Shown here: one piece after another, positions 11,793-33,091 of the stretch
Position numbering within the stretch: the first letter of the stretch is position 1
Layout: every line of letters begins with the position of its first letter
NCBI GenBank assembly: GCA_910890315.1
Contig: CAJVGD010000005.1
Coordinates: 1,798,001 to 1,862,000 of the forward strand
From: Serendipita indica DSM 11827
Taxonomy: Eukaryota; Basidiomycota; Agaricomycetes; Sebacinales; Serendipitaceae
Reading direction: 5' to 3'
Length of the DNA: 64,000 nucleotides
Position numbers and translations under genes: made by a program
Notes under the pieces: model-generated
Database searches by the model: none
Told to the model about the DNA's origin: nothing
What the model saw: the letters and a program-made list of their open reading frames with translations, nothing else

Positions 11793-13013
11793 ATGGCCCA
11801 GTCCCCACAGGACCTCGCGCTGCAGATCGAAGCGCTGCGCCTGGAGGGCATACCACTGTGGCAGATAGCAAGAAACGTCACAGTTTCTCGCTACCTTCAA
11901 GGTACGTATTTACGAGTCGTTTCGCGATTATAACACTGAAAGTTTGTTCAGCCGCTGCGGTGACAATTCTCTGTTACGACACGCTTCTTACACTCCGTGA
12001 AGAGGTTTGTTTGCTTGAGCGTGCGGTTCGTTCAGCTCATGTCCCTAGGTCAGATGGCTATGGCCGATGAAATGGGAGGCCATCAAGGTTGGCCTGTACA
12101 TTGTAGGTGGTACTGAGTTTTGCGGCTTTTCTAAGATAATGGCTTCAGAATCGCCTAATCGCAATCACATTTTCGATCTACAGCTGCCTGCATTTTGCAG
12201 GGCTACAAAGGGACTTATCCAAGGCATAGTACGTTTCGCAATTCGGGAAGTATTACAACCCTCACTCTTAGCAGTTGCCGAGGCGCATTCAGTGCGGTCG
12301 GCCTAGCCTGTTTCTGTTCGACTGCGATCTGTAATTGGATCATTCTCTGTCGTACAAACGCTCTCTTAGGGTCCGGAAAGGAGAATTACAGAAGATTTCT
12401 CATCCTCTTTTATGCAATCGTTCATTTCGGCACTCTCTACATCGCCATTCGGATCATTATCCTAGTACAGTCAAAGACATTTTATTCGCGGGAGATTTAC
12501 AGCTGCGCATTCGCCTTTCACTCGCACATTATGCGTTTCCAGTGGATATTAGAGATGTCCTTTGAAGCCACTCTTTTCAGTATCACAATCTACAAACTCT
12601 ACGAGCTTCGCAGCTCAGTCCCATATTTTCGCCAAACGCTTTCCCGACTATTCTATGTCCTCTTCCGCGACGGAGCGAGCTACTACGTAATCCTCTTTTT
12701 CCTCCGCATAGCCAACGTCGTCGCCTACGCAAACAAACACGGCTCACTCAATTTCATCGCACTTTATATACAATGGTCAATCATGACCGTGTTCATTTTC
12801 CGCATTCAGCTCAACCTCCTCGATGCCAGTCACCAGACATGGCCAGAGGATTCTATGGAGCTTACCGATGTCGGAACCTCTGCGGCGACTGGCGAGGTAA
12901 CAAGGCAATTCCGCATCCGAATGGCGGCACAACAAAGACAACGGGAGCTTTCCACTTTCTCTATAGGAGAAAGCTATGAAATAAAACCTCCGGAACAAGT
13001 TGAGAATATATGA
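11793..13013 (+). CDS. DUF6533-type multi-pass membrane protein, copy 1
   Basis: A membrane protein of unknown function from a family greatly expanded in Agaricomycetes. Exons are 11793-11901, 11952-12004, 12049-12102, 12149-12228 and 12272-13013. The DUF6533 region reads AAAVTILCYDTLLTLREE then VRWLWPMKWEAIKVGLYI and NRLIAITFSIYSCLHFAG. Several hydrophobic segments follow (for example LILFYAIVHFGTLYIAIRII) and then the family-typical LFYVLFRDGASYYVILFFLR. The C-terminal tail is short and polar. Intron positions and phases match copy 2 at 16574, so the two are paralogues. A transport or signalling role is possible, but nothing here shows it. Confidence 0.85.
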
Positions 13014-16573: not shown

Positions 16574-17939
16574 ATGTCTGTTGCCCTCGAGCTAGAAGCG
16601 GTGCGAAATGATGGACTCTCCCTTGTACAGATTGCCCAGAATCTTCAGCTCACGCGCTGGATGAATGGTCAGTACTTTCACGAGCTAGTATATGTTAACT
16701 TATAGGTTTCAAATTGCAGCCGTCGCAATCTCCTTACTAATCTATGACACCTCGCTGATTTTCGGTGACGAAGTGAATCTGGCAAGACGAGCATGTCTCA
16801 AAACGTTTCTGATGACATTATAAATTGCAGGTGCAACTGTTCTGGCCAAAGCGGTGGAGTGTCATCAAACTGTTCTACTATCTAGTGCGTGACCTCTCCC
16901 TCGACGATGCATAACAGGTTGACAGGAGTGCTACCTCGGTCCCTTAGAACCGGGCATTATGCGCGGTGTTTACGCTCATTAATGCTCAGCAGTTCATTAG
17001 CAGTAGGACAATGTCGGATAGATTGTGAGTGACAGCCCTCCAATGACCAGACACTCGATTCATTCGCCATGCAGCTGCACGTATAGCCTCATAGGCGTTG
17101 GCTATGCTACATTCCTTTCATTTGCAATGTGCAACTGGATGCTTCTCGCGCGCACTCGAGCACTTCTTGGGCATAGCCGCCCCACGTTCAACACTCTCCT
17201 TGTTATCTACTTCTTCTTATCCTACGCCATTACTGGTGTACTTGTCGCTATCACCTCCCACGAATTCCGCACCAAAATTTTCTTCTCGCCGACAATGCAC
17301 ATCTGTTCCTCTTCCATTCATCCGAAGACGATGGGGTTTATCTGGGTACCTCCAATGCTCTTTGAGGCCACAATATTCGTTGTCACGACCATCAAACTCT
17401 ATGACAAGACGAGGCACAGCAGGGGCTTTGGCACCTACCTGTTCTCCATCCTCTTCCGCGACGGCGTATGCTACTACGTCTCCATCCTCCTGTTCCGGAC
17501 GTGGAACCTCGTTGCTTGGAACATGAGACCCATATCATTTACCTTTACTGGCGTCTTCATCCTCTGGGTCATCATGTCCATCGCATGCTCCCGACTACAG
17601 CTCAACCTGCTCAGAGCTGCCAACTACCAAAGCGAGACATGTGGTACTGGCGGAGTGATAAGCGGAGGGGCGTCAAACACGAGGAGTCGCGATGTACCGA
17701 TATTTGGACGGCGAGCAAGTGGTAGCCGATGGCTTCAACGGCCCAGAAATCCGAGACTGACATTGGATGATGCGAGTGAGAAGAAACAATCTATACTCAA
17801 CACCGTTTTCCAGCAGTCGGTTTCGGCAGTACGTTCGTTGGGTAAAAGAACGAAGCCACAGGATGTTGAAATCACAGTGCTAACCGAGGTCGTCCTGCAA
17901 CGAGATGATCTAGGTGTTAATGCTCGACGATATTCTTAG
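16574..17939 (+). CDS. DUF6533-type multi-pass membrane protein, copy 2
   Basis: A paralogue of the gene at 11793. Exons are 16574-16667, 16720-16772, 16831-16884, 16948-17024 and 17075-17939, with the same intron phases as copy 1. The start MSVALELEAVRNDGLSLVQ leads into AVAISLLIYDTSLIFGDE, VQLFWPKRWSVIKLFYYL and NRALCAVFTLINAQQF, the DUF6533 signature. Several membrane segments follow, with LFSILFRDGVCYYVSILLFR matching the FRDGxxYY block of copy 1. The C-terminal cytoplasmic tail is longer and basic (RSRDVPIFGRRASGSRW), then acidic. Function unknown. Confidence 0.85.
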
Positions 17940-25282: not shown

Positions 25283-26517
25283 ACAATGTGAGGGGTTCTA
25301 AGGCTAGATAATTCGCCGTATATGAATGTCGCTTACATTTCAGTTCTTTCCGGCGAATAGTGAGTGATTCCGATCGAACGCCGGCTTTGCTTTCTGTGCA
25401 TTCCCAGAAAAGGGTAGTAACTATGGCATTTGACACCCTGATAACATCAAACCCGGCTCTTTACAGCTTTTGATCTCTCGCGCTTTGTGTCGACCGTGGA
25501 TCTCAGCCGCAAGATAGGCACCACCGGGTGACAGACAGGTCCATATGCTCCTAGAAAGGCAAAAGCGGACAAACCTGATGATCCAGCGGTCAACAGGTCA
25601 CAAACGTGTCCTTGAAGTGGCTTTTTTCTACGTCAGTAGCAGGCGGCTTATTTCAGATCAAATGGACACACTGGTGATGAATACCGTCACGCCTTTGTTG
25701 GGTGGGTGACCGCTCCGCTGTCCGATGCATGATCATAGTTGGCATTGGCCGCCTTAGGGACAGCCCTTGTCACGGGTACGTGGGTTGGGCACAGACGCTT
25801 CATTCGGCTTGACCCAAGACCCCATTTGCCATACTATTTGCTAGTCGTCGATTATGCACATGGCCCCGTGGCGTCAGGCGTTAATCCGAAACGGCGTTTC
25901 CTCCGATCAATCCACCACGTTCTAGACAACCAACAAGCAAGCCTGCCCAGTCAAACATGGGACAGTAACTGTTCTTGTCGCCGCTCCGTAGGCGCACGTA
26001 CGCGTGGTTGATCCACTTGACCCTCCTTTATCAGTTTCCCACGATGCCTATTCATCAAGGCATGCGCCGGACGTCATCTTCTGCATTTGCACTTCTGGGT
26101 GAACTCAACCAAAAGTGAGCAATATGGGCAGTTTAGGGACAGAGAAATATCTTTCATTTAGCGCGTTGGTGACTGTTGGTTGTAGTAGGAAACAACAACT
26201 TCGTTTGAAACGGCGCATAGCTAAGCTATCATCGCTTAACTTTACTCCTGTGGAGGAACGGATGAAGCACATGTCAGTATCCGGTTGAGTAGCAAAAATT
26301 GCCCACGGTCAATGAAATGAACGTAAGATTTCTAAAGGTCCATCATTGCGTGTCTCTACGGCCGGACCTACCCGCCAAGTGCCGCGGATTAGCACGTCCG
26401 TTCATCACATGTTCGCGTCTCGTTGATGAGATGATCCCTGTTCGTGACGCTTTGGGAATAGCCCAAGCTTCTGTGCTCGTTGGGAGGGCGGATGGTTGTA
26501 CCTCGCAAGTCTCTGGG
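25283..26517. other. Gene-poor left part of the duplicated island
   Basis: No gene recognised. From about 25990 the sequence (GTGGTTGAT, then TTTATCAG and CACGATGCCT) is repeated at about 29535, marking the left edge of the duplicated unit and the upstream region of microgene A1. Confidence 0.55.
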
Positions 26518-26525
26518 TATAAATA
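26518..26525 (+). promoter_or_regulatory. TATA box of microgene A1
   Basis: TATAAATA, 72 bases before the ATG at 26590. All four microgenes have a TATA element at this distance (72-82 bases). Confidence 0.7.
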
Positions 26526-26589
26526 CGCTCCAAAGTTCCAGAAAATGATGAAAAGCACCTTTTCTCACTGCGTCCAGTTACAGTATACA

Positions 26590-26992
26590 ATGTCGAACAC
26601 GAACAGCAGTGTGCACAGTATGTCCTCCATTCTCCATTCCGCCTGGGTTCGCCCTCGATGCAATGGAAAGGAATTTGCTGAAATAACCATGAATACAGCC
26701 TTAGACGCTAATACGTCCACAATAGAAGGTGGTAACAAACCAACTCTTGTGGTAGGGGGTCATAGCCATCAAAATACGACGGCAGCGAGTGGAAACGATG
26801 GCTCCATGTACTGTAAATCTTTGCTGCTGACAACGGGAATCTTGATACTGACGCAAGACATCCAGTCGTAACCCCAAACTGGGATTCATCGAATAAGTAC
26901 GTGCTCGCAACGTCGACAAGCATCCACTCAGCACAATTTCCAGCTGCTTCGCAAGTTTCACTCGTAGCCTCGATCCTTCTATGTCCCAGTGA
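26590..26992 (+). CDS. Microgene A1: 71-residue protein of an unrecognised four-gene family
   Basis: Four exons: 26590-26617, 26705-26812, 26866-26896 and 26944-26992 (28, 108, 31 and 49 bases; intron phases 1,1,2). It starts MSNTNSSVHN, has a Ser/Thr/Asn/Gly-rich middle (VVGGHSHQNTTAASGNDGS) and ends FVTPNWDSSNNCFASF, then a short tail with LDP. The exon 3 and 4 lengths and phases equal those of the three sister genes. Asp-Gly of the shared SSDGCF block is Asn-Asn here, so this is the most diverged C-terminus. No signal peptide, CaaX end or membrane segment. Function unknown; nothing comparable comes to mind from named families. Confidence 0.7.
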
Positions 26993-27164
26993 TCAGACTA
27001 TCCCGTCACTGCGTCAGAGATCTTGGTGTTCCCCGACGTTGTTGACTCTCCTAAACTCGTTCCGTGTCTGGATAGACCTCGGAATTGAATCTACCTCTGA
27101 AAACAAGCGCGATTGAATGTTACTTGAGAACTACTAGTGATAGAAGGCCACGTCTATCCGCTTG

Positions 27165-27290
27165 CGTTGGGTGGATGGTCTCATACGCTTGAACACGCAT
27201 TACACGTTTGCGTCCGACAAGGGCTTGCCTTGGGTGGATGATCTCATACGCTTGAACACGCATCACGCCTTTGCGTTCGACAGGGTATGT
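27165..27290. repeat. 63-base tandem duplication, two copies
   Basis: TGGGTGGATG occurs at 27168 and 27231, followed by TCTCATACGCTTGAACACGC in both. The period of 63 is a multiple of three, so on the plus strand the copies read WVDGLIRLNTHYTFASDKG and WVDDLIRLNTHHAFAFDR. Nothing else shows that it is translated. Confidence 0.8.
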
Positions 27291-27514
27291 GCCCCGGAGC
27301 GGGCACCACTTACACTCGTTGATGGCGCGATAGTCCAAGGTACACTGCTAACTTTTGTAAATTGTATCCATAGATTAACGAGTTCTCGGCATCTCATTCC
27401 AGGCGTTACATGCTACTTCATGAGAATCATCATGTGAAGTGGCTTGTTCAACAAGTGCTTATACATAGCTGCACAACCTGCCTCGCCGCTCTCTCGGTGT
27501 GGCCTCTTAGACTC

Positions 27515-27853
27515 TTAACGAATGCCTCCCGTCGAGGGTGTCGACTCTACGGTCAAAATCACGATCAACCTAGTTTGAAGTCGAGTTCCCACGATTTCAG
27601 CATCGAGCAACCTTTGCTTGACGGCATTCAGTAGGTCAGGGTCGTCTAGCCACATGGCGGCCCGATTCCGAACGTCGTTGCAGCTGCCACGCAAACGAGA
27701 TTTTTGGAGGTACAAGTCTTGGAAATCAGTCTTTAACGTCTCGAGAGTATTCCCGTACCCAGCCCGTACTAGTTTGAAGGGAATACGCACTCTGCTACAA
27801 CCGAGACCTTTGTATTGGTATCGAGGCGCGTCGACCAACCTAATTCTTGTCAT
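27515..27853 (-). CDS. Possible small hypothetical protein (112 residues)
   Basis: ATG 27853 (MTRIRLVDAPRYQYKGLG) to a stop at 27515. The middle (TLETLKTDFQDLYLQKSR) and the region with AAMWLDDPDLLNAVKQRLL look helical and protein-like, which is why I keep it. No domain recognised, no counterpart in duplicated unit 2, no clear promoter. It may be part of a longer broken gene or a chance frame. Confidence 0.3.
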   Translation of the reverse strand: MTRIRLVDAPRYQYKGLGCSRVRIPFKLVRAGYGNTLETLKTDFQDLYLQKSRLRGSCNDVRNRAAMWLDDPDLLNAVKQRLLDAEIVGTRLQTRLIVILTVESTPSTGGIR

Positions 27854-28144
27854 TTCTACCCTTGCCGATGTAGTAAATTTCCAGATTTAGGTGGTCAATT
27901 TGTATGGATATTCCCAAACTGACGGAAAGCTCGCAATAATGGGAATTTGGGGAAGTTTGCAAGGCGCTAGGTGATGGGAAATATTCCTACTAACGAGAAC
28001 AGAGGCGCAGCCCGTCGGGTGGAGGTTTGAGTGGATATTTCTACCTCTACCGCTGGACACGGAAACTCAGTATCCGTGAAAACAGACATATCCGACCGAG
28101 ATAACTTGCGTAACGCATCTCCTTACTCCAAACCAAAAAAGGGG

Positions 28145-28225
28145 AAAATAAAACAAAACGAAATAAAGTGAAATAAAACAAAATGAAATAAAGTGAAATA
28201 AAACAAAATGAAATGAAATGAAATT
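28145..28225. repeat. AT-rich tandem repeat, 25-base unit, about three copies
   Basis: Units built from GAAATAAAACAAAATGAAAT plus AAAGT begin near 28145, at 28170 and at 28195; the last decays into GAAAT repeats. The strand is strongly asymmetric (almost no T-runs or C), as in polypurine microsatellites. Confidence 0.85.
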
Positions 28226-28273
28226 CCCTGTCTTCTTGCCATAGCCGCTACCCCTAGGAAGGCCCGCATGTAG

Positions 28274-28301
28274 ATATTTATTTTAACCTAAAAATAAATA
28301 T
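28274..28301. repeat. AT-rich inverted repeat (hairpin)
   Basis: ATATTTATTTT at 28274-28284 is complementary to AAAATAAATAT at 28291-28301 with a 6-base loop. Symmetric AT hairpins can be terminators or breakpoints; no role is shown. Confidence 0.6.
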
Positions 28302-28692
28302 TTTATCCCGGAGGACAGGAATCTACTTCTTCGCGCAATGACCGCAGGCCACACCGAGCAGCCGGAGTGGAAATTGTCGAGGGGTGGGGATGAGCGGACT
28401 AACCGAAATAATACCGGGTCCGTACCGACCGGGTTATGCAGCCGCGAGTGTCGGTGTTGCACCGAAAGTGACAAAGGCAAGCCTCCGGGAGTGTTAGCTG
28501 CATACTTAGGCAAGGGCGGGCGTGTATCTAGCATTGGATCCGTAAATAGTAAAACATGAACTAATTGCCCATCGGGGCCATTTCAACTGCAGGATTGCTC
28601 GCATTGCACTTAATGATGAAATTATCTCTCAGCTGTCGACGCTAAAGGACACTTTTGTACCTTTGTACCGCTTTTACCTCGCAGTTGGCGCA

Positions 28693-28698
28693 TATAAG
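28693..28698 (+). promoter_or_regulatory. TATA box of microgene B1
   Basis: TATAAG, 81 bases before the ATG at 28774; the matching element of B2 is at 31659. Confidence 0.65.
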
Positions 28699-28773
28699 CA
28701 TATGGCTACAAGCCATACGGACACCAGCATTTCTTTCCCTCTAAGTGCGACCAACGGCATTCCAGCGCTAAGG

Positions 28774-29195
28774 ATGTTTCCAAATACGAGCGGACTGCAC
28801 GGTGAGCTCCATCGCGGTGTTAATAGAAGTATGGTTGGATGAGAGGACTCGGTTGACATCCTGTCCTGTAGCTATCGCGAACACTGATTCATCGTCTAAT
28901 GGCGAGAAGAATGATTTGCAGAGGGGAAATACATCCTCAACTCCTGCGTCATCCAGAGAAAACGCAGGTTGCCCTGGGCAAGGAGCCAATTGCGACTCCT
29001 CTATCCACTGTGCGGCCTTTTCATTTCGTTACTGCAATCTCTGACTCTGAAATCGCGGTATTGCAGTCACCGAACCCAATTGGGATTCCTCTGATGGGTA
29101 GATATAGGATCTAAGACCTTTGAGCCTCGCTGAAGCCACATTCCAGATGTTTCTCGGGTTTCACCTGCAATATCGACCCGTTCACCTCTCTCTAG
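28774..29195 (+). CDS. Microgene B1: 81-residue protein of the four-gene family
   Basis: Exons 28774-28801, 28872-29009, 29067-29097 and 29147-29195 (28, 138, 31 and 49 bases; phases 1,1,2). It starts MFPNTSGLHA, has a polar middle (SSSNGEKNDLQRGNTS, then PASSRENAGCPGQGANC) and ends FTEPNWDSSDGCFSGF, a five-residue gap, then DPFTSL. Intron 2 has a CTCTGACTCT branch region and a TTGCAG acceptor. Without splicing, exon 3 would run into a stop right after Asp-Gly, so intron 3 is needed to add CFSGF. The middle differs clearly from the A type while both ends are shared. Confidence 0.75.
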
Positions 29196-30044
29196 ATAGT
29201 CACATTCTCACCGTGACGGCAATCAAACCGCACGCACCCTCGGCTCGTTTTCTTTGATTCCTGGTTTATTATTTTATTCGATCCCCTCCCGAGTATTGCG
29301 CCTGAATGATTCTGTGCACAGATGCCTAGTCTGGGATATACACGGGTTTACCGTCTTTTTTGATGCTGTGTTGACTTGAAACAAGATAATATGGGCAGGT
29401 GATAGGATATTGCAAGTCTCAGGTCGGATGAGAGTATGGATAATACCGTACTCAGCCTTGAGAGAATGTAAAGAGCCGAAAAGATCTCACGAAATGTTGA
29501 GGAGAAATCTTCAGGCCTGACGAGCCCGCGGTCAGTCGTACTCGTGGTTGATTGACTCTTTTATCAGCTTCTCACGATGCCTGTTCATCAAGCGGACATG
29601 CTCTCTCTACACTTGTACTTCTTCTGGAGACGCTCACCCGAGAGTGAATGGTATTGGTAACGTCAGATTAGTGAAAGAGCCTCCACCTGGCGGGTTGGCG
29701 ATTGTTTGAGCTTCTAGTAGGAAACGATGAATTCCTTTGAAGCGACGCGGCGAATCCTTTTGTATTCCGTGCATGAGCGGAAAAATCGCACCCCAATGTG
29801 TCCCTTTGGGGGGACAAATTCTGACCAAGGTTAATAAGCGAACGTAAATCACCAAAGGCACATCATCATGACGTGGGTTCTGGCACGTGCGGGCTTGTTG
29901 GACACACCTTGCGCATTCGTACATCCGTTTACCGCATGGTAATGACCGCGGGTGATATAATATTTGTTCCTATCGCTTAGCGAATAGCCTGGGCTGCCAT
30001 GCTCGCAGGAAGGGCCGAGGCTTATACCTCTCCATTTCTCCAGC
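29196..30044. other. 3' flank of B1 and 5' flank of A2, the unit junction
   Basis: Up to about 29510 the sequence matches the 3' flank of B2 (32160-32545); from about 29535 it matches the 5' flank of A1 (25990 on). The two homology blocks abut near 29510-29540, as expected at the junction of a tandem duplication. No other gene seen. Confidence 0.6.
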
Positions 30045-30052
30045 TATAAATA
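30045..30052 (+). promoter_or_regulatory. TATA box of microgene A2
   Basis: TATAAATA, 82 bases before the ATG at 30127 and identical to the A1 element. Confidence 0.7.
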
Positions 30053-30126
30053 CGTTGCAAATTTCCAGAACATGACGAACAGTACCCTTTTGCCAACCTT
30101 TCGAACTACAATATCGAGAGACGGCA

Positions 30127-30525
30127 ATGTCGAACATGAACGGGGTACACAGTATGTTCTCCTTTTGCCGGGCGGCCTGATCTTGCCCTTGGGGGAATGC
30201 GAAGCGACCGCTGAGATAACTACGAATCTAGACCTGGATACCAGCGCGTCCACAACTGAAGGCGGTGGGGACCGATCCCTTGGGGTAGGAGGTCATAATC
30301 ATCAAAATGCGACTGCAGCAAGCGACGACAATGGTTCTCTATACTGTGAGTCCTCGATATTGACAACGGTCATCTTGATGCTGATACATGATATCCAGTC
30401 GTACGGCCAAACTGGGATTCGTCCGACGGGTACGTGGGTCCGACGTCGATAAATATCCGCTGATAGCACGTACCAGGTGCTTTACAGGGTTTGATTGCGA
30501 TCTCGATCCCCTTAGGTCCCATTAA
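30127..30525 (+). CDS. Microgene A2: 72-residue protein of the four-gene family
   Basis: Exons 30127-30151, 30232-30345, 30399-30429 and 30477-30525 (25, 114, 31 and 49 bases; phases 1,1,2). It starts MSNMNGVHN, has the A-type middle (GVGGHNHQNATAASDDNGS) and ends FVRPNWDSSDGCFTGF, then a short acidic tail with DLDPL. Exon 1 is one codon shorter than in the sister genes. The C-terminal block is intact, closer to the B genes than to A1. No targeting signal or known domain. Confidence 0.75.
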
Positions 30526-31658
30526 CCAAACTACACTATCGTTGATGGTCGTCTTATCGAAAATGCAGGCCATCATCAACTCTGTTAATTCTGAAAGTAG
30601 CTTGAAATCCGAATAGGAATCAGATCGTAATACCCATATCCCTGTGGCTAGCTGCCTGTTGCTCATGGATGCCAAACTTGATATCTATGTATACTATCTC
30701 CCGTATAATGACTGCTACAACTATTTCTATACCTTGATAAATTCTTTATATCCACTGTCAAAATGAGTGCCGCAGAATTGGCAACATTTGGTGGCGATCG
30801 GGTTCAAGTTATTGATGTGGTAACCAGTAAGGACTCAAAGGGGCTTTATGGACTGTGTATAGGTATAATACAAGGCATTGTGATGATCCTGGTCCATGAG
30901 ATACATAGTTTGGTGAGCGTACTTCACTTTAGGGGACATTAGGCTGTTGAGGATCTACAGCTACCCCAGTACGAGTTATAACAATCGAATAAAATCATTC
31001 ACCAAGGGGTTATCAATTATTCTGCAGCCACTCACGGTGTATGGTTCTCACTAGCACGATGAAGCCTGAGCCCTGCCCAGGATTCGAGGTGAGGTCAACT
31101 AGCGGACAGTGTAAATTAATCGAGAATTCGCGGTGATCGGGACTTGGCGATTTTGCGCAAGTCACCGGAAGCTATAGAAACCTTGCCGTCTTCTTGTGAG
31201 GCGCGTCGGTCATGACCATTAGCTCGCGAACAATTCGCATGTAGGAATTCCGCTGACCTACGCGAGCTTAGTAACTTATTCATCAAGTGTCAAGGAGCCT
31301 CTTCTCTGCGAGTTGATCGCATGGAACCGTCCGCTGGACTGCAATCGTTGTGGGGCTGGATGAGCGTAGAATATCCGAGATAACATGTTCGTGTCAGACG
31401 GAGAGTGGATGCGAAAGGATCGGTGCTGAAGGCTACAGCTGTAGCTGAGAGTTGGCTGTCTTTCGACGCGCATCAGCACCGCTTCTAAATGGATGTAATG
31501 AGAAAGAAGCAATAGAACTAACTCCTTTTGGCACCAAGCACCCGCCCACAATGTTGCATTGCTCGCATCGCATTCGCAGGGTGAATTTCACTCTCATTTG
31601 CCGAATTAGACATGAATCTTTATACCTTTGCACCCCACCGTGCCTTGCTGTCGACGCG
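30526..31658. other. Spacer between microgenes A2 and B2
   Basis: The first 100 bases match the 3' flank of A1. From about 31520 the sequence matches the 5' flank of B1. Between, no gene, repeat or RNA is recognised. Confidence 0.55.
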
Positions 31659-31664
31659 TATAAG
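31659..31664 (+). promoter_or_regulatory. TATA box of microgene B2
   Basis: TATAAG, 82 bases before the ATG at 31741. Confidence 0.65.
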
Positions 31665-31740
31665 TATGCGACGGCAAGCTATTTGGACACCAGCATTTCC
31701 TTCGCTCCAAGTGTGACCAACATCATTCTAGTTCTGAGGA

Positions 31741-32158
31741 ATGTCATCAAACACGAATGGAGTGCATGGTGAGTTCCATCGCGGGTTTACTAAAAGCTGG
31801 GGGCGGAGAACACTGGGTTGACTTCTGGGTCCCGTAGCTCCTACGGACGCTGATACATCTTCTAATGGCGAGATTAACAATCTGCAGAGCGGGAATATAT
31901 CCCCAGCTCCTGCTTCATCCAGGGAAAACGCAGGTGACCCTGGGCAAGGCGGTTGCGATTCCTCTATCCACTGTGTGCCCTTTTCATTTTGTCACTGCAA
32001 TCTCTGACTCTAATCTCGCGGTATTGCAGTCATCGAACCCAATTGGGATTCCTCTGATGGGTAGATATAGGTTCCAAGAGCTTTGAGCCTCGCTGAAGCC
32101 GCATTCCAGATGTTTCTCAGGTTTCAACCGCGATTTCGATCCGTTTTCCTCGCTCTAG
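31741..32158 (+). CDS. Microgene B2: 80-residue protein of the four-gene family
   Basis: Exons 31741-31768, 31838-31972, 32030-32060 and 32110-32158 (28, 135, 31 and 49 bases; phases 1,1,2). It starts MSSNTNGVHA, has the B-type middle (PASSRENAGDPGQGGCDSS) and ends FIEPNWDSSDGCFSGF, then DFDPFSSL. Compared with B1, changes in the shared blocks are few and two gaps in the middle are whole codons (exon 2 is 135 against 138 bases), as expected for a translated gene. Confidence 0.75.
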
Positions 32159-33091
32159 ATAGTCACATCCTCACCGTGACGGCAATAAAGGCAGGAGGCT
32201 CCGGATCTTCCCCGGTTCGGCACCTTCGGTCTGTTTCCTTTGGTTTCTGGTTTATTATTATTATTTTCGATCCTCTCCCGAGTATTGCGCCTGAAATGAT
32301 TCTGTACACAGATGCCCCGTCTGGACGGGCATGCAACACCGATGCCCATATACGGTAGTTATTATTACATATAGACACGAGTTTACCGTCTTCTTTGATG
32401 CAGTGTTGACTTGAAACAAGATAATGTGGGCAGGTGATAGGATATGGCAAGTCTGACGTCGGATGAGAGTATGGATAATATCGTGCTCAGCCTTGAGAGA
32501 ATGTAGAGAGCCGAAAAGATCTCACGAAGGTTGAGAAATCTTAGGACCATCCTCCAGCTCACTGCCAGATGTTCCTCAACCAGTGCATTTTTCTGCAGTA
32601 AACGTCTCACAACTCCGCTTCTAGGCTAGTCTGGGCCACATACGAGCCACACAGCCGGACAAGACTGCCTACTTGGGGGACGATCTGTAAGTTTGAGTGA
32701 TTCGTGACGGGCGCTGTGTGTGACCCGGAACCACGGATCAGCAAGCAATGGTGGTGCGATAGGTAACTTCCTCTCGGAAGCGAATAGGCAGAGCCACGAA
32801 CTGAACAGAGATCCTTCAGCGCTTCGAACAGCCCCGAATGGGAAAGTTTCAGCATTGGAAAGGTTGACTTGACATGGTCCATTAGGAGAATGGGATGAAA
32901 AGTCACAAAATATGAGTGTATGGACCTCGCTGAGAATCTTGCAGCAATATGAGGGGAGTATGTAAATCCTTTAACGCCGAAGCTTGGAATACAGTAATCG
33001 GAGTAAACGTATTATTACACTACTAGAATTATCAGTGACGAAGCTCGACGTCCGTGCAAGTACGCACAGAATGAATGATGGTTATGGACAA
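32159..33091. other. 3' flank of B2 and intergenic region
   Basis: To about 32545 it repeats the 3' flank of B1 and so ends the duplicated island. The rest, up to the end of SF3B6, holds no supported gene; small minus-strand frames at 32383-32906 look like chance. Confidence 0.55.

What the first reader, a model, noticed from the sequence alone, without database searches (positions are those of the whole stretch)
26590..32158. A new-looking family of four tandem four-exon microgenes with a PNWDSSDGCF core
Seen directly: four genes on one strand (A1 26590, B1 28774, A2 30127, B2 31741) encode 71, 81, 72 and 80 residues. All have intron phases 1,1,2, exon 3 of exactly 31 bases and exon 4 of exactly 49 bases. 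All start with Met, Ser/Asn/Thr-rich residues and VH or LH, and end in F[VIT][RET]PNWDSS[DN][GN]CF followed by [STA][GS]F and a short acidic tail with DP. The middle is variable and polar. There is no signal peptide, CaaX box or membrane span. Exact exon lengths and whole-codon gaps across two diverged types argue for translation. I know no named family with this pattern.
Basis: seen in the sequence. Interest (0 to 1): 0.88.

Follow-up and report, generated by a model that had tools for sequence, protein, structure and literature searches.

The report
Four tandem orphan fungal microprotein genes
A root-dwelling fungus, very probably Serendipita indica, carries four neighbouring tiny genes, each cut into four exons, whose proteins share a closely kept ten-residue core near the end; they look like real protein genes, have no relative in the collections at hand, and what they do is unknown.

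Summary
Four genes on the + strand encode 71, 81, 72 and 80 residues, with intron phases 1,1,2, exon 3 of 31 bases and exon 4 of 49 bases in all four. They behave as coding genes: dN/dS is about 0.3-0.4 within pairs, and stop-free frames in all four are rare under simulated neutral drift (58 and 15 of 20,000 runs). A TATA box sits 72-82 bases before each ATG. An A-B block was duplicated. No further copy was found in the 24.7-Mb genome, though a diverged copy could be missed. There was no Pfam, PDB-sequence, viral or prokaryotic relative. The genome is very probably Serendipita indica. Fungal proteomes and RNA data were not available, so 'new family' is shown only against those libraries, and expression is not shown. 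Best reading (inferred): a lineage-restricted, largely disordered intracellular microprotein that docks onto a partner through its C-terminal F..PNWDSS[DN][GN]CF..F motif. Cyclic-peptide and pheromone family membership fail defining tests.

The parts
26590..26992 (+). gene A1, 71 aa; exons 26590-26617, 26705-26812, 26866-26896, 26944-26992
   Evidence: spliced translation
28774..29195 (+). gene B1, 81 aa; exons 28774-28801, 28872-29009, 29067-29097, 29147-29195
   Evidence: spliced translation
30127..30525 (+). gene A2, 72 aa; exons 30127-30151, 30232-30345, 30399-30429, 30477-30525
   Evidence: spliced translation
31741..32158 (+). gene B2, 80 aa; exons 31741-31768, 31838-31972, 32030-32060, 32110-32158
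   Evidence: spliced translation
26518..26523 (+). TATAAA at -72 from the A1 ATG
28693..28698 (+). TATAAG at -81 from the B1 ATG
30045..30050 (+). TATAAA at -82 from the A2 ATG
31659..31664 (+). TATAAG at -82 from the B2 ATG
25997..29511 (+). first copy of the duplicated A-B block (A part 25997-27000, B part 28654-29511)
   Evidence: self-blastn: 65.5% and 77% identity to the second copy; the spacers between A and B do not match
29537..32542 (+). second copy of the A-B block (A part 29537-30533, B part 31619-32542)
   Evidence: self-blastn

Best explanation
Supported by computation: four protein-coding paralogues of two types (A, B), arranged A1-B1-A2-B2, fitting an old A/B split followed by a duplication of the A-B block; each codes for a polar 71-81-residue protein with a variable N-terminal part and a more strongly kept C-terminal segment F..PNWDSS[DN][GN]CF..F....DP. 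Inferred: they are lineage-restricted, largely disordered microproteins transcribed from TATA promoters and kept inside the cell (no signal peptide), whose variable Ser/Asn/Gly-rich part is a tether and whose aromatic/acidic C-terminal segment is a linear docking motif for one conserved partner; the protein would act by occupying that partner's pocket as an inhibitor or adaptor. Types A and B may serve different conditions or partner paralogues.
For: Codon-level purifying selection. Across types the 13-residue core has 11 synonymous to 1 non-synonymous change (A2-B1) and 10 to 1 (A2-B2); B1-B2 has 0 non-synonymous changes there; the part before the core has dN 0.76-1.16 in the four A-B pairs. 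Equal exon 3 and exon 4 lengths and phases in A and B, although introns and flanks are down to 36-57% identity in the two A-B pairs compared (A1-B1, A2-B2). Low hydrophobicity: A2, B1 and B2 on the disordered side of the charge-hydropathy line, A1 just across it; 43-52% S+N+T+G. No dibasic pair, CaaX end, hydrophobic N-terminus or membrane stretch in 4 of 4. TATA at -72/-81/-82/-82 leaves little room for an upstream exon carrying a signal peptide (inference).
Against: No partner, expression or protein evidence; docking is inferred from conservation alone. A1 breaks the pattern: in its comparisons the 13-residue core has 6.2 non-synonymous to 5.8 synonymous changes (A1-A2), 5.7 to 6.3 (A1-B1), 5.7 to 5.3 (A1-B2), and within the A pair the core is no more constrained than the leader (dN 0.23 and 0.24). 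A Trp, a Cys and two Pro kept at fixed distance would equally fit a processed peptide. No structure was predicted. The +1 frame of the spliced B1 and B2 also has no stop, and one of 12 introns (A1 intron 3) lacks a branch-like site by the pattern used. The codon-position test alone is not significant for B1/B2 (P 0.11). A1 and B1 have open in-frame ATGs further upstream (-45/-42 and -72), which A2 and B2 do not share in open frame, so the start codons of A1 and B1 are not certain.
Confidence: 0.45

Rival explanations
1. Precursor of a ribosomally made modified peptide: an 18-residue stretch bracketed by two invariant Pro (P|NWDSS..CF......DP|) with a conserved Trp and Cys is cut out by a prolyl oligopeptidase in the cytosol, leaving a 4-residue tail.
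For: The stretch from one Pro to the next is 18 residues and the tail 4 residues in 4 of 4. No signal peptide seen. One prolyl oligopeptidase locus found in the genome, on C1.
Against: The pattern of conservation is the reverse of the MSDIN family, where leader and follower are conserved and the core is variable (passages). The follower is 4 residues instead of 17. The one peptidase locus found is on another contig. Of 25 window ORFs scanned against Pfam, 16 matched a family at the thresholds used and none of those is a prolyl oligopeptidase or a known peptide-modifying family; 9 had no match and stay open.
Confidence: 0.12
2. Effector-like proteins exported to the plant by an unconventional route, with a conserved C-terminal motif as in the DELD family of the same fungus.
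For: S. indica has a family of 101-135-aa proteins with a strictly conserved C-terminal motif (PMC3192844 section 12). The part before the core evolves fast and the genes are tandem duplicates.
Against: No signal-peptide-like N-terminus in 4 of 4. No RSIDELD end. The window ORFs that match Pfam are mostly housekeeping-type genes, whereas DELD genes are reported in gene-poor regions near transposable elements.
Confidence: 0.2
3. Pheromone-like signalling precursors.
For: Small variable precursors with a conserved end, in tandem (sequence).
Against: No CaaX end in 4 of 4. No Pfam pheromone match at E up to 10. None of the 17 STE3 receptor matches found lies on contig C5.
Confidence: 0.04
4. Not functional proteins: conserved RNA or decaying duplicates with chance reading frames.
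For: At nucleotide level exons are no more alike than introns within pairs (A1/A2 exons 61-84%, introns 66-74%; B1/B2 exons 71-97%, introns 75-92%).
Against: Synonymous excess (one-sided Fisher P 1.3e-4 and 3.1e-3 on rounded counts); neutral stop-free frames in 58 or 15 of 20,000 runs; whole-codon gaps in exons; branch-like sites in 11 of 12 introns against a mean of 5.4 in shuffles.
Confidence: 0.06

Closest known systems
DELD (RSIDELD) family of Serendipita/Piriformospora indica
   Same: Small proteins of very probably the same fungus, a strictly conserved C-terminal motif, no known domain (PMC3192844 section 12).
   Different: DELD proteins are described there as most or all secreted, 101-135 aa, with a regular His/Ala pattern and two predicted helices; ours show no signal peptide, lack that motif and are 71-81 aa.
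MSDIN cyclic-peptide precursors of Amanita and Galerina
   Same: Small basidiomycete precursors, clustered genes, two conserved Pro (passages); no signal peptide (recalled).
   Different: MSDIN: 33-37 aa, conserved 10-aa leader and 17-aa follower, variable 6-10-aa core. Here 71-81 aa, variable leader, conserved 18-residue stretch, 4-residue tail.
Intrinsically disordered microproteins (general class)
   Same: Under 100 aa, polar, low hydrophobicity, one conserved short segment.
   Different: No sequence relation to any member known to me; partner unknown. The class is cited from a search listing and the start of an abstract (PMC13276856), not read.

Membership tests
MSDIN / prolyl-oligopeptidase cyclic peptides | 33-37-aa precursor with 10-aa leader ending in Pro, 6-10-aa core ending in Pro, 17-aa follower | tested here: not met
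   71-81 aa; 49-59 residues up to and including the first bracketing Pro; 18-residue stretch; 4-residue tail (definition from passages of PMC5159998)
MSDIN / prolyl-oligopeptidase cyclic peptides | conserved leader and follower, variable core | tested here: not met
   across A and B the reverse: dN 0.76-1.16 before the core, 0.03-0.20 in the 13-residue core
MSDIN / prolyl-oligopeptidase cyclic peptides | dedicated prolyl oligopeptidase | tested here: inconclusive
   one prolyl oligopeptidase locus found, on C1; role unknown; counts are lower bounds
DELD effectors | C-terminal RSIDELD and signal peptide | tested here: not met
   ends are SMSQ, FTSL, LRSH, FSSL; no hydrophobic N-terminus by a 10-residue hydropathy scan; no signal-peptide program was available
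Basidiomycete mating pheromones | C-terminal CaaX (recalled) | tested here: not met
   0 of 4
Basidiomycete mating pheromones | linked STE3 receptor gene (recalled) | tested here: not met
   17 matches found, none on C5
Dikaritin / epichloecyclin type peptides | signal peptide and Kex2 dibasic sites between repeats (recalled) | tested here: not met
   no dibasic pair and no hydrophobic N-terminus in 4 of 4
Disordered microprotein with docking motif | under 100 aa and low hydrophobicity | tested here: met
   71-81 aa; three of four on the disordered side of the charge-hydropathy line, A1 just across it
Disordered microprotein with docking motif | binding of a partner through the motif | not testable with these tools
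   needs a binding assay

The most novel reading that the evidence does not exclude
The four genes encode a new class of ribosomal peptide precursor in Sebacinales: a conserved 18-residue, Pro-bracketed peptide with a Trp and a Cys six positions apart is excised, and possibly cross-linked, in the cytosol from a fast-evolving carrier with almost no follower.
Probability: 0.1. Interest if true: 0.8.

Novelty: new variant of a known kind. Interest (0 to 1): 0.48.

Why it matters
If translated, this is an orphan protein family with a constrained core and an exon structure kept longer than most of its sequence, very probably in a beneficial root endophyte that is studied in the laboratory. It gives a clean case for asking how a lineage-restricted microprotein gains a fixed motif, and a ready set of four natural variants for finding the partner.

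Tried and rejected
A cluster of PNWV[SA]S matches on C1:796000-805500 first looked like a second array; reading it by eye shows genes that I recognise as CBM1-bearing GH10 xylanases (named from recall; no family call was made), so it is chance similarity. The 2-mismatch genome pattern gave 181 places (92 forward, 89 reverse, the 4 true ones among them) against 96 in the reversed control, and not all were listed. I read the frame at the 26 weaker places that were fetched as loci and at the 4 extra places: 0 of 30 carry PNWDSS[DN]; the rest were not read. In an earlier script minus-strand places were read on the wrong strand; one search replaces it, and the 'AG' column used a wrong offset and is not used. 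One search used an exon-3 pattern one base out of register and found 0; one search is the corrected pattern. In one search my enumeration missed B1 because its stretch was cut too short; one search built it. Membership in the pheromone and MSDIN families was tested and fails defining features. Upstream 10-mers shared by all four genes at up to 1 mismatch: none. Literature: the motif letters in 0 papers; listings (10 of 10 listed; 2 of 2; 15 of 62; 10 of 91) show no description of such a family in titles or starts of abstracts; these searches cover open-licence PMC papers only, and no supplement was searched.
Full report
Observation. Introns are 47-87 bases. Branch-like sites (YTRAN, 10-45 bases before the acceptor) occur in 11 of 12 introns, against a mean of 5.4 in shuffled introns (P 0.001 in 2000 shuffles). 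A TATAA[AG] lies at -72, -81, -82 and -82 from the ATG, a word with a rate of 0.00028 per base on the + strand of the window. A1 and B1 also have open in-frame ATGs upstream (-45/-42 and -72); in A2 the upstream ATGs are out of frame and in B2 they run into stops.

Are they genes? Within pairs the exons are not more alike than the introns (A1/A2: exons 61-84%, introns 66-74%; B1/B2: exons 71-97%, introns 75-92%), so bare identity proves nothing. The codon pattern does more: dN 0.28 and dS 0.91 for A1/A2, dN 0.16 and dS 0.41 for B1/B2; one-sided Fisher tests on rounded counts give P 1.3e-4 and 3.1e-3. Across types, where introns and flanks have fallen to 36-57% identity (A1-B1 and A2-B2 compared), the 13-residue core has 11 synonymous to 1 non-synonymous change (A2-B1) and 10 to 1 (A2-B2); the pairs with A1 are less clean, 6.3 to 5.7 (A1-B1) and 5.3 to 5.7 (A1-B2), still with dN 0.20 against saturated or near-saturated dS. 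Differences in exons 3-4 by codon position are 7, 5, 21 (B1-A2), 8, 8, 19 (A1-B1), 9, 8, 16 (A1-B2), 8, 3, 18 (A2-B2), 9, 7, 12 (A1-A2) and 4, 2, 4 (B1-B2). Results against: the codon-position test is weak for the B1/B2 CDS (P 0.11; 0.013 for A1/A2), within the A pair the core is no more constrained than the leader (dN 0.23 and 0.24), and the +1 frame of the spliced B genes is also free of stops. A neutral simulation (K80, kappa 2, assumed distances, started from the A2 CDS) leaves all four frames stop-free in 58 of 20,000 runs at A-B distance 1.0 and 15 of 20,000 at 1.5. Exon gaps within pairs are whole codons: 3 and 6 bases in A, 3 in B.

How the array arose. Self-comparison gives two homologous pairs: 25997-27000 with 29537-30533 (65.5%) and 28654-29511 with 31619-32542 (77%); 25 bases lie between the end of the first block and the start of the second. 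This fits a tandem duplication of an A-B block after an older A/B split. The B pair is more alike than the A pair in introns, downstream flank and most exons, which one duplication event does not explain without gene conversion or unequal rates.

How many copies. In the 24.7-Mb genome the exact core pattern occurs 4 times with 0 in the control, the exon-3 pattern with splice context and 3 mismatches 4 times with 0 in the control, and searches with the A1 region, the B1 region and the B2 protein hit only this locus. The protein search is insensitive: B2 did not find A1 or A2, and its own exon 3 scored E 4.55. Of 30 weaker pattern places read in frame, 0 carry the core; the 2-mismatch search had 181 places in all, most not read.

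Where it lies. A phosphate transporter exon on C16 is identical, over all 190 aligned residues, to the 'Phosphate transporter' chain 7sp5_A. That this entry is PiPT of Piriformospora (Serendipita) indica is recalled; the start of the abstract of PMC5159500 speaks of a crystal structure of PiPT, a fungal Pho84 homologue. The published P. indica genome is 24.98 Mb with 50.68% GC (PMC3192844, passages); ours is 24.71 Mb and the window 48-53% GC in 4-kb steps. The species is therefore very probable, not proven. I scanned 25 ORFs chosen from the window against Pfam (83 ORFs of 120 aa or more were listed); 16 matched a family at the thresholds used, one of them an aminotransferase just under its cut-off and one a sub-cut-off match at E 0.034: RING, RRM, DEAD-box helicase, SF3a60 (two ORFs), CSN8/PSMD8 family, Isy1, Band 7, TsaD, L22, HMG box, polysaccharide deacetylase, SacI domain, DUF3402 and the two weak ones. 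None of these is a known peptide-modifying family; 9 ORFs had no match.

What it is. No Pfam family fits any of the 4 proteins (one member had a match at E 0.18, taken as chance), no PDB sequence, no viral contig (36 pattern places, none confirmed), no prokaryote contig (208 places, none confirmed), no open-licence PMC text with the motif letters. No other fungal genome could be searched, so family novelty rests on Pfam and these. The proteins are polar and net negative (charge -2 to -9), 43-52% S, N, T and G, without dibasic pair, hydrophobic N-terminus, membrane stretch or CaaX end (hydropathy scan, no signal-peptide program). Between types, constraint is concentrated at the C-terminus and the rest is free to change, which is what one expects of a tethered docking motif. 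That is the reading I commit to at 0.45; the coding status alone I hold at about 0.9. Kept inside the cell is inferred from the lack of a signal peptide and from the TATA spacing.

Rivals. The fixed Pro-18-residue bracket with Trp and Cys (4 of 4) is a real regularity and keeps a processed-peptide reading alive at about 0.1, but the conservation pattern, sizes and lack of a linked peptidase differ from the MSDIN system. DELD proteins are an analogue in layout only (PMC3192844 section 12). The S. indica effector set of 106 candidates required a signal peptide (PMC10333260, passages), so these genes would have been passed over there (inference). Pheromones fail on the CaaX end and on receptor linkage.

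Noticed in passing
window 27515-27886, - strand: A 123-aa open frame between A1 and B1 with no Pfam match (E up to 1) and one partial, interrupted relative on C10:160252-160383 (70% identity, query 62-118). No counterpart in the self-comparison.
   Followed up: partly
window 12159-13010 and 17022-17936, + strand: Two related hydrophobic, probably multi-membrane proteins (35% identity over 187 residues) without a Pfam match at E 0.001; membrane nature judged by eye.
   Followed up: partly
window 27160-27285: A 63-base tandem duplication, 89% identical, between A1 and B1.
   Followed up: no
B1 exon 2, window 28985-29001: ANCDSS near the end of exon 2 resembles PNWDSS of exon 3 (two mismatches to the core pattern); B2 has GGCDSS. 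Possible old internal repeat or chance.
   Followed up: no
L035 (G000:C1:796000-805500), - strand: Tandem genes that look like CBM1-GH10 xylanases with Thr/Ser-rich linkers, two catalytic parts seemingly fused head to tail (read by eye).
   Followed up: no
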